Origin: an uncultured Blautia sp.
GTDB lineage: Bacteria > Bacillota > Clostridia > Lachnospirales > Lachnospiraceae
NCBI GenBank assembly: GCA_945872375.1
Contig: CAMBYR010000002.1
Coordinates: 1 to 33,798 of the forward strand
DNA: 33,798 nt
Reading direction: 5' to 3'
Part shown: piece after piece, positions 7,146-24,813 of the stretch
How positions within the stretch are numbered: the stretch's first letter is position 1
Layout of the letters: every line of letters begins with the position of its first letter
The notes under the pieces: generated by a model
What the model saw: the letters and a program-made list of their open reading frames with translations, nothing else
What the model was told of the DNA's origin: nothing
The model's database searches: none
Made by a program: the position numbers and the translations under genes

Positions 7146-7148
7146 TAT

Positions 7149-7225
7149 AAAAGTCCCGGACAGCAGCCATGTGATGCAGCATGCTTGCATGCGGAGGCAC
7201 ATGGATATTGGACGGGCTAACCTGT
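7149..7225. repeat. 77-bp structured direct repeat, copy 1
   Basis: AAAAGTCCCGGACAGCAGCCATGTGATGCAGCATGCTTGCATGCGGAGGCACATGGATATTGGACGGGCTAACCTGT; 75/77 identical to copy 2. Confidence 0.95.
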
Positions 7226-7306
7226 ATGAGCAAGCAGGCCAACAGGCCGGATTGCGAATACAGGTTGTGATTGCGGGAGCATGAAATGCGGAGCAATCAA
7301 CTTTTA

Positions 7307-22139: not shown

Positions 22140-22212
22140 GCTGCTGTGGCTCAGTCGGTAGAGCGTCGCCTTGGTAAGGCGGAGGTCACGGGTTCAATTC
22201 CCGTCAGCAGCT
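22140..22212 (+). tRNA. tRNA-Thr (anticodon GGT)
   Basis: Acceptor GCTGCTG/CAGCAGC, anticodon arm CGCCTTGGTAAGGCG, T-arm CGGGTTCAATTCCCG; followed by poly-T. Confidence 0.96.
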
Positions 22213-22230
22213 TTTTTCATGCCCAAAATT

Positions 22231-22396
22231 CCTAGTACATCGTATCTTAAATAACTAGACCGAATACTTGCCCGTTTTTCCGATAGCACCATTCAAAAAG
22301 CCTCGTCGTAGCCCACTACGCCTGCGTTTTTTGAATAGCACTCTCAAAAAAACGTTCTGCGTATTAGTCCAGTTATTTTGCGAACGATGTACTAGG
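22231..22396. repeat. 166-bp imperfect palindromic element with 13-bp perfect terminal inverted repeats
   Basis: CCTAGTACATCGT (22231-22243) and ACGATGTACTAGG (22384-22396); two 81-nt arms around CGTAG-CCCA-CTACG. Confidence 0.9.
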
Positions 22397-22609
22397 TTTT
22401 ATGCGGCTTTCCAGACTTGAGAAAATTTTGGAAGTTCAAAAGGTAATCAAAAAGGTAATCAAACATGTGTTTGGGCTATTTTTAGAAGGGAGAAGTGGCA
22501 TAGCTTCCGCAAAAAAACGAATAGTTATGGATAAAACAACACAAAACTGTTTAAAACCTCGGGAAAGATTTTATTGTGATTTTTGAAGAGATATGATATA
22601 TTATAGATA

Positions 22610-22705
22610 AAGGGAGAGCCATAGAAGCGGCTACCCTCTCAAAAAACAACTAACTACAACATTTTATGCATAGCCGTCACTAGTGCGAGTAGTGGCGGCT
22701 ATTTT
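22610..22705 (+). ncRNA. Candidate antisense RNA antitoxin
   Basis: Promoter TTGTGA (22574-22579), 17 bp, TATATT (22597-22602); ends at ATAGCCGTCACTAGTGCGAGTAGTGGCGGCTATTTT; overlaps the 3' part of the minus-strand toxin transcript. Confidence 0.6.
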
Positions 22706-22788
22706 CTACCCTTGAAGATTGTGTAACACAATCCAACAAGAGCAACAATGAAGATACAAAACTGAATCAAATCAGAATATGTAACCAT
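22699..22788 (-). CDS. Putative holin-like type I toxin, 29 aa
   Basis: MVTYSDLIQFCIFIVALVGLCYTIFKGRK: short hydrophobic peptide with basic tail, SD GGAAGGAGG. Minus-strand promoter TTGATG, 17 bp, TATACT (CATCAA 22901-22906; AGTATA 22878-22883 on +). Confidence 0.7.
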   Translation of the reverse strand: MVTYSDLIQFCIFIVALVGLCYTIFKGRK

Positions 22789-23145
22789 TGGCAAGCCCTC
22801 CTTCCTATAGTCTGGAGGGTTAGCCCCTCCGGTGAAAGAGGGTAAGCCGCCTTGTTTCCATGGTCTCCCATGGAGATAGTATATCATAGAACAAAATGTA
22901 CATCAATAATATTCTGGAAGTGTTGTACAGATCACCGGGAAATCAGGAACAGATCAGAAATATCATAACGGCAGCAGGCTGCCGGAGCGTGTTACTGAAC
23001 GAAGTGAACAATTTTTTCAATGATCCGGAAAAAAATCATATAGTCTCTTTAAAAATAGGACAGTTTATGATAAAATAACACTTTAACAGAGCTTATTACA
23101 GAATTGCGCAGAAGAAAGCGCAATAGAGACTCAGGAGGGCGAGAA

Positions 23146-24813
23146 ATGGAGAATGAAACTGTTTCCAAGAATTTTATAGAAAATATTATCGATAAGGATC
23201 TGGCAGAGGGCGTTTATGACACCGTGCATACGCGTTTTCCGCCGGAACCAAATGGTTATCTTCATATCGGCCATGCAAAATCTATTTTGCTGAATTATGG
23301 ACTTGCAAAAGAATACAACGGCAAATTCAATATGCGTTTTGACGATACCAACCCGACGAAAGAAAAAACGGAGTTCGTAGAATCAATCAAGGAAGATATC
23401 AAATGGTTGGGAGCAGACTGGGAAGACAGACTGTTCTTTGCTTCGGATTATTTTGACCAGATGTATGAGGCAGCGGTAAAGCTGATCAAAAAAGGCAAAG
23501 CATATGTTTGTGATCTGACAGCGGATGAGATCCGTGAATATCGCGGTACCCTGAAAGAACCAGGCAAAGAAAGTCCCTGGAGAAACCGCAGCATAGAAGA
23601 AAATCTGAAGCTTTTTGAAGAAATGAAAAACGGTGTTTATGAGGATGGAACCAAGGTACTTCGTGCAAAAATCGATATGGCTTCTCCGAATATGAATATG
23701 CGTGATCCTGTTATTTATCGTGTAGCGCATATGGCACACCACAATACAGGTGATAAATGGTGCATCTATCCGATGTATGATTTTGCGCATCCCATCGAGG
23801 ATGCCATCGAAGGCATCACACATTCCATCTGTACTCTGGAGTTTGAGGATCACAGACCGCTTTACAACTGGGTTGTTCAGGAACTGGAGTATCCGCATCC
23901 GCCAAAACAGATTGAGTTTGCAAAGCTTTATCTGACCAACGTGGTAACTGGCAAGCGTTATATTAAAAAACTGGTGGAGGAAGGCATTGTAGATGGCTGG
24001 GATGATCCGCGCCTTGTTTCCATCGCTGCACTTCGCCGCCGCGGATACACACCGGAATCCATTCAGAAATTTGTGGATCTCTGTGGTGTGGCAAAGGCAA
24101 ACAGCTCCGTGGATTATGCAATGCTGGAGTACTGTATCCGTGAGGATCTTAAGCTGAAACGTGCCCGTATGATGGCAGTCCTGGATCCGGTTCGTCTTGT
24201 AATTGACAATTATCCGGAAGGCCAGGTGGAATATCTGGAAGCTCCAAACAATATGGAAAACGAAGAGCTGGGAACCAGGAAGATTCCTTTCGGAAGAGAG
24301 CTCTTTATTGAAAGAGACGACTTTATGGTGGATCCGCCGAAAAAATATAAACGTATGTTTGTAGGAACGGAAGTACGTCTGATGAACGCATATTTTGTTA
24401 CCTGTACCGGTTTTGAAGCAGATGATGACGGTACGGTTCATACGGTTCACTGCACCTACGATCCGGATACCAAAGGAGGAAACGCTCCGGATGGCCGCAA
24501 GGTAAAAGGAACAATTCACTGGGTAGAAGCAACCCAGGCCGGAAAAGCAGAAGTGCGTCTTTATGAGAATATTGTAGATGAGGAAAAAGGAGTATATAAT
24601 AAAGAGGACGGAAGCCTCAATGTAAATCCTAATTCCCTGACAAAGGTAACTGCTTATGTGGAGCCTGCTCTGATGGAAGCAAAAGGATATGACAGTTTCC
24701 AGTTTGTACGAAACGGATTTTTCTGTGCCGATATCCGCGATTCCAGAGATGGTGCGCCTGTGTTTAACAGAATTGTATCACTGAAAAGCTCCTTCAAGCT
24801 TCCAAAGGCCTGA
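23146..24813 (+). CDS. glnS: Glutaminyl-tRNA synthetase
   Basis: [37 protein letters not shown] 23146 preceded by AGGAGGGC. Confidence 0.96.

What the first reader, a model, noticed from the sequence alone, without database searches (positions are those of the whole stretch)
22606..22906. Candidate type I toxin-antitoxin locus: 29-aa holin-like toxin and convergent antisense RNA
Seen: a minus-strand ORF MVTYSDLIQFCIFIVALVGLCYTIFKGRK with strong SD GGAAGGAGG and its own promoter (TTGATG-17-TATACT). A plus-strand promoter (TTGTGA-17-TATATT) faces it and would give a ~95-nt RNA ending at an intrinsic terminator (22670-22705) that overlaps the toxin stop codon. Knowledge: this 3'-overlapping convergent layout with a short hydrophobic toxin matches TxpA/RatA and BsrG/SR4 type I systems. 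Inference: the locus is an active toxin-antitoxin pair. The automated ORF call extends the toxin with 33 spurious N-terminal residues.
Basis: partly seen in the sequence, partly recalled or inferred. Interest (0 to 1): 0.82.

Follow-up and report, generated by a model that had tools for sequence, protein, structure and literature searches.

The report
Type I toxin-antitoxin gene pair
This is a small bacterial self-poisoning gene (a 29-residue membrane peptide) paired with a facing antisense RNA that should silence it; it is one of a large, little-described family in Lachnospiraceae gut bacteria, and its conserved RNA pairing suggests how the antisense RNA could switch the toxin off.

Summary
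A 29-codon ORF (22702-22788, minus) has a strong SD, its own promoter and a facing promoter/terminator for a ~97-nt antisense RNA. The peptide belongs to Pfam PF16935 Hol_Tox (31 bits, cut-off 23.3). Close relatives occur in 88 of 397 genomes of its family, often multicopy or tandem; I aligned 115 distinct copies. The whole ~300-bp unit is conserved: sense promoter (70% of copies vs 2.5% of shuffles), antisense promoter (90% vs 3.8%), the antisense terminator overlapping the stop (103/115), and the peptide is under purifying selection. This panhandle covaries strongly. Folding suggests a switch: the mRNA 5' end either masks the SD or is held by the 3' end; antisense RNA would occupy the 3' end and return the SD to masking. 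This resembles bsrG/SR4 of Bacillus subtilis. Verdict: a well-supported new member of a known kind (TxpA/BsrG-type type I toxin-antitoxin); transcription and toxicity are untested.

The parts
22702..22788 (-). 29-codon toxin ORF (MVTYSDLIQFCIFIVALVGLCYTIFKGRK), one predicted membrane helix, basic C-terminus; stop TAG 22699-22701
   Evidence: Pfam PF16935 Hol_Tox 31 bits vs cut-off 23.3; pN/pS about 0.13 over 110 relatives
22796..22805 (-). Shine-Dalgarno GGAAGGAGGG, 7 nt before ATG
   Evidence: sequence; AAGAAAGGAGGG near-invariant in 115 copies
22878..22906 (-). toxin promoter TTGATG-17-TATACT with TG-extended -10; start expected near 22871
   Evidence: position-specific score in 115 copies 70% vs 2.5% of shuffles
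22837..22869 (-). 5' arm of the mRNA panhandle (GGGAGACC...GGCGGCTTACCCTC); its CCCTC can also pair with the SD
   Evidence: duplex with own 3' arm -46.5 kcal/mol; folds; covariation
22814..22830 (-). local hairpin GGAGGG-GCTAA-CCCTCC between 5' arm and SD
   Evidence: sequence; 82 of 88 parsed copies identical, rare compensatory GAAGGG/CCCTTC
22574..22602 (+). antisense (antitoxin) RNA promoter TTGTGA-17-TATATT, TG-extended; start expected near 22609
   Evidence: 90% of 115 copies vs 3.8% of shuffles at this position
22609..22706 (+). antisense RNA (antitoxin), about 97 nt, wholly complementary to the toxin mRNA 3' UTR
   Evidence: extent inferred from promoter and terminator; fold z -4.1
22670..22705 (+). 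intrinsic terminator of the antisense RNA, overlapping the toxin stop codon; its U-tract is the complement of the Lys codons before the stop
   Evidence: TAG+CCGCC in 103/115 copies
22612..22640 (-). 3' arm of the mRNA panhandle (opposite strand = 5' end of the antisense RNA); followed by a short U-tract, probable toxin mRNA 3' end
   Evidence: the T-run in this copy is short (TTTATC), consensus is TTTTTC

Best explanation
A chromosomal type I toxin-antitoxin module of the Hol_Tox (TxpA/BsrG-like) kind. The ~266-nt mRNA encodes a 29-aa single-helix membrane toxin. The facing ~97-nt RNA is fully complementary to the mRNA's 3' UTR and pairs there, which should recruit RNase III. In addition (inferred from folding), the mRNA's 5' end has two possible partners: its own 3' end (panhandle, SD freer) or the SD (masked). 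The antisense RNA carries a copy of the mRNA 5' end and occupies the 3' end, so the real 5' end falls back on the SD and translation stops. Shown: anatomy, conservation, covariation of the panhandle. Inferred: transcription, toxicity, the switch direction, RNase III.
For: Hol_Tox match over cut-off; 88/397 family genomes carry relatives, with tandem arrays; whole unit conserved in 115 copies; both promoters at fixed places; purifying selection; own 5'/3' arms pair at -44.4 vs -37.4 kcal/mol when swapped, 0 of 20000 permutations, also worse between close relatives; compensatory classes CCTA/CCTG with TAGG 13/13, CTTTA-types with TAGAG 7/7, ATAGAG with CTTCTAT 18/21; predicted SD accessibility 0.167 with own 3' UTR, 0.036 without, 0.037 with shuffled 3' UTR (for this copy); copies that lost the toxin's 5' half but keep the antisense half (about 11) outnumber the reverse (3, two of them with altered ORF) (my reading of the listed copies).
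Against: No expression or toxicity data. Predicted SD accessibility in the full-length mRNA is still low (median 0.13), so the 'panhandle = ON' direction is a tendency of an energy model, not a demonstration; in hok and AapA systems 5'-3' pairing keeps the mRNA OFF (PMC6733600). Copies are related, so permutation counts overstate independence. The sense terminator in the window copy has a short U-tract.
Confidence: 0.85

Rival explanations
1. Type I pair in which the 5'-3' panhandle keeps the full-length mRNA inert (hok/AapA-like); 3' trimming activates it, and the antisense RNA acts on the activated or nascent form or only through RNase III.
For: 5'-3' pairing is inhibitory in hok and aapA (PMC6733600); full-length SD accessibility is low in absolute terms.
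Against: In this family the 5' end itself complements the SD, and removing the 3' end lowers predicted SD accessibility in 87% of copies, the opposite of hok/AapA; the antisense RNA here targets the very 3' end that trimming would remove.
Confidence: 0.3
2. The conserved arms are terminal inverted repeats of a mobile element (MITE-like) rather than RNA pairing.
For: The unit is about 300 bp, scattered, tandem in places, absent upstream of glnS in 19 relatives, sometimes multicopy.
Against: Conservation continues outside the arms through both promoters to the -35 hexamers, so the arms are not the ends; the arms change together by compensatory classes including matched insertions; the ORF evolves under purifying selection.
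Confidence: 0.05
3. A membrane microprotein with a regulatory antisense RNA but no toxin function, or a decayed, silent copy in this genome.
For: Single copy in a draft genome of 73% completeness; no functional data; short sense U-tract.
Against: All elements are intact in this copy and its panhandle pairs as well as the average (-46.5 vs mean -44.4); asymmetric decay fits toxicity; related Hol_Tox/TxpA/BsrG peptides are toxic (PMC4147584).
Confidence: 0.12

Closest known systems
bsrG/SR4 of B. subtilis prophage SPbeta (Rfam RF01412 BsrG)
   Same: Small hydrophobic toxin, convergent antisense RNA on the mRNA 3' end, masked SD, 5'-3' pairing of the mRNA (duplex -66.9 vs shuffled -41.9 +/- 5.2), and SR4 binding at the 3' end remodels the SD region (PMC6562991).
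   Different: 38-aa toxin and a longer SR4 (own knowledge); no Rfam BsrG match here; here the antisense RNA is shorter and its 5' end copies the mRNA 5' end.
txpA/RatA of B. subtilis skin element
   Same: 3'-overlapping convergent pair, SD masked in a few GC pairs.
   Different: 59-aa toxin; RatA acts by RNase III decay and no SD remodelling was seen (PMC6562991; PMC4147584).
PF16935 Hol_Tox proteins
   Same: The peptide matches over the cut-off; more distant Hol_Tox loci also show 5'-3' pairing, z -3.3 to -8.1.
   Different: The family is defined on protein only; this 29-31-aa VTYSDLIQF-type subfamily is concentrated in Lachnospiraceae (88/397 in the family, vs 5 weak hits among about 398 genomes across the phylum).
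TxpA-like sequences in Clostridium bolteae
   Same: Earlier in silico prediction of TxpA-like toxins in a Lachnospiraceae species (reported in PMC6563280).
   Different: No antisense RNA or RNA structure is described in that passage; sequences not compared here.
C. difficile type I modules (CD2517.1-RCd8 and others)
   Same: Convergent overlapping toxin/antisense RNA in a clostridium.
   Different: 50-53-aa toxins without sequence relation to known type I toxins (PMC6563280).

Membership tests
Pfam PF16935 Hol_Tox | Score over the gathering cut-off | tested here: met
   31.0 bits vs 23.3
TxpA/BsrG-type type I toxin-antitoxin | Short hydrophobic peptide with basic C-terminus | tested here: met
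   sequence; C-termini KGRK/GKRK/KGKK conserved
TxpA/BsrG-type type I toxin-antitoxin | Convergent antisense RNA gene overlapping the mRNA 3' end | tested here: met
   promoter and terminator conserved at fixed places in relatives; sequence level only
TxpA/BsrG-type type I toxin-antitoxin | Both RNAs are made | not testable with these tools
   needs RNA-seq or Northern
TxpA/BsrG-type type I toxin-antitoxin | Peptide toxic; antisense RNA relieves toxicity | not testable with these tools
   asymmetric decay of copies is only indirect
TxpA/BsrG-type type I toxin-antitoxin | SD masked in mRNA structure | tested here: met
   by folding only
Rfam BsrG (RF01412) or another Rfam antisense family | Covariance-model match over gathering score | tested here: not met
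   none at gathering; weak RefA9 23.5 vs 49 bits over the terminator; SPbeta bsrG control matched at 210 bits
NCBIfam PepG1 (NF041589) | Score over curated cut-off | tested here: not met
   18.9 vs 70 bits
Fst/par (RNA I/RNA II) | Fst-type peptide | tested here: not met
   only Hol_Tox matched in Pfam at E<=10

The most novel reading that the evidence does not exclude
Across Hol_Tox type I modules the antitoxin RNA works as a molecular copy of the toxin mRNA's own 5' end: it competes with that 5' end for the mRNA 3' end, so binding far from the start codon switches the SD off. The covarying arms would make this a general, genetically testable riboregulatory switch of the whole family, with the 5'-3' pairing activating rather than silencing.
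Probability: 0.3. Interest if true: 0.6.

Novelty: new member of a known kind. Interest (0 to 1): 0.45.

Why it matters
Type I pairs in Lachnospiraceae, dominant gut bacteria, appear little described (the held literature gave only a one-line prediction for C. bolteae). Here a multicopy family with 115 compared copies gives natural compensatory mutations that pin down an mRNA 5'-3' pairing and make the antisense mechanism directly testable by swapping arms. It also explains unannotated or over-extended small ORFs in these genomes.

Tried and rejected
Rfam at gathering and at permissive E-value: no family fits; the RefA9 hit is sub-threshold. NCBIfam PepG1 far below cut-off. Chance explanation for the promoters: not excluded in the window alone, excluded by the family alignment. 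The 62-aa ORF as the real product: rejected because its start lies upstream of the -10. A relay in which the 5' arm pairs the hairpin's 5' half and the hairpin's 3' half masks the SD: considered; folding favours direct pairing of the 5' arm with the SD for this copy, and the copies are split. Structure prediction of the 29-aa peptide was not run: a lone membrane helix would tell little.

Full report
What is there. The minus-strand ORF 22788-22699 encodes MVTYSDLIQFCIFIVALVGLCYTIFKGRK behind GGAAGGAGGG. A promoter-like TTGATG-17-TATACT precedes it and a facing TTGTGA-17-TATATT lies beyond its end. The antisense RNA would run about 22609-22706, and folds into a 5' hairpin and a 13-pair terminator stem followed by a U-tract (-32.3 kcal/mol, z -4.1). 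In this single sequence the promoter hits are no more than chance would give, so the case has to rest on relatives. The 62-aa ORF call begins upstream of the -10 and cannot be the product.

The peptide. It matches Pfam PF16935 Hol_Tox at 31 bits, over the cut-off of 23.3; NCBIfam gives only a sub-threshold PepG1. The own draft genome has one copy. In its family 88 of 397 genomes have relatives at E<=0.01, several with many copies or tandem arrays, such as three at 371-bp spacing in G343. Across the phylum only five weakly matching genomes besides this one were found among 399. Named carriers include Acetivibrio ethanolgignens, Blautia, Faecalicatena contorta, Lacrimispora, Dorea and Roseburia; G365 and A. 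ethanolgignens share contig lengths, which places the family as Lachnospiraceae (inference).

The conserved unit. I aligned 115 distinct copies. The consensus runs from the -35 of the toxin promoter through a near-invariant 5' leader, SD, ORF, a stop codon embedded in the antisense terminator (TAG+CCGCC in 103/115), a variable stretch, a conserved 3' end, and the antisense -10 and -35. At the expected places the sense promoter scores >=10 in 70% of copies against 2.5% of shuffles, and the antisense promoter in 90% against 3.8%. The ORF shows pN/pS about 0.13 over sampled pairs, so the peptide is translated and selected.

The panhandle. The mRNA's first ~35 nt are complementary to its last ~30 nt; equivalently the antisense RNA starts with a copy of the mRNA's 5' end. 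In the window the duplex is -46.5 kcal/mol and the whole mRNA folds at -108.5 kcal/mol, z -7.9. In 91 copies with both arms, own arms pair at -44.4 on average against -37.4 when 3' arms are dealt out anew; none of 20000 permutations reached the observed value. Swapping is worse even between copies with ORF identity of at least 0.92 (mean penalty 2.4 kcal/mol, 70% worse) and more so with distance. Changes match in classes: CCTA/CCTG in the 5' arm with TAGG in the 3' arm (13/13), CTTTA-type with TAGAG (7/7), ATAGAG with CTTCTAT (18/21), AGAGAG with CTTCTCT or TTTCTCT (9/9); two copies carry a double change GGTTGCC/GGCAACC. Copies are related, so these numbers are not independent events, but matched insertions are hard to explain without pairing.

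How it probably works. With its own 3' UTR the SD is predicted unpaired at 0.167 on average, without the 3' UTR 0.036, with a shuffled 3' UTR 0.037, with a foreign one 0.106; 87% of copies are more open with their own 3' UTR than without. For the window copy the values are 0.48 against 0.00, because the 5' arm pairs with the SD once the 3' arm is gone. Antisense RNA covers the 3' arm, so its binding should free the 5' arm to mask the SD. This is inference from an energy model; absolute accessibility remains low, and in hok and aapA the 5'-3' pairing is inhibitory (PMC6733600). The precedent for the direction proposed here is bsrG/SR4, where SR4 binds the 3' end and extends SD masking from 4 to 8 bp (PMC6562991); bsrG of SPbeta also has 5'-3' pairing well beyond shuffles. 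More distant Hol_Tox loci show it too (z -3.3 to -8.1). Decay by RNase III of the long duplex is expected from txpA/RatA and bsrG/SR4 but untested.

Indirect sign of toxicity. Among the copies that are not intact, about 11 (L023, L025, L041, L043_1016, L047, L048, L057, L058, L067, L103, L107) have lost the toxin promoter/leader but keep the antisense half; only L079, L097 and L149 have clearly lost the antisense half, and in L097 and L149 the ORF is altered or truncated. The script's own classes are cruder (18 vs 14) because several copies scored as lacking the antisense half merely fail a strict motif and still score as promoters; the smaller numbers are my reading of the printed sequences, and the difference is only suggestive.

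Place in the genome. The unit lies between tRNA-Thr (22140-22212) and the gene for glutaminyl-tRNA synthetase (ORF 23104-24813; name from its sequence, own knowledge). In 19 genus relatives the region upstream of that gene holds no copy, so it was gained here or lost elsewhere. A copy on a viral contig sits beside a 2085-aa tape-measure-like ORF, so phages carry it at least sometimes.

Verdict. A well-supported new member of the TxpA/BsrG-like Hol_Tox kind of type I toxin-antitoxin, with an RNA not covered by Rfam. The claim 'works like bsrG/SR4' is plausible but rests on folding; 'active' is untested.

Noticed in passing
window 22224-22403: An imperfect palindrome (37-nt outer arms, 39-nt inner arms) follows the tRNA-Thr gene; parts of its ends recur elsewhere in the genome (C150:1-55 100%, C25:8441-8506 94%, C60), like a small non-autonomous mobile element.
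   Followed up: partly
L096 1228-1257: A copy of the module lies on a viral contig next to a 2085-aa tape-measure-like ORF.
   Followed up: partly
L115 (G343:C11:16800-18350): Three tandem copies at 371-bp spacing; the antisense terminator differs between copies.
   Followed up: no
L041, L025, L058, L067 and others: Copies without toxin promoter and leader but with ORF and antisense half intact: possible solitary antitoxin RNAs.
   Followed up: partly
window 7148-7306: Rfam Clostridiales-1 RNA (RF01699), 120 bits.
   Followed up: no
L178-L183: Distant Hol_Tox loci (MITYSDLFQFCLVV-type, another family of the phylum) with perfectly complementary mRNA ends such as GGCGGTTAGTC/GACTAACCGCC.
   Followed up: partly
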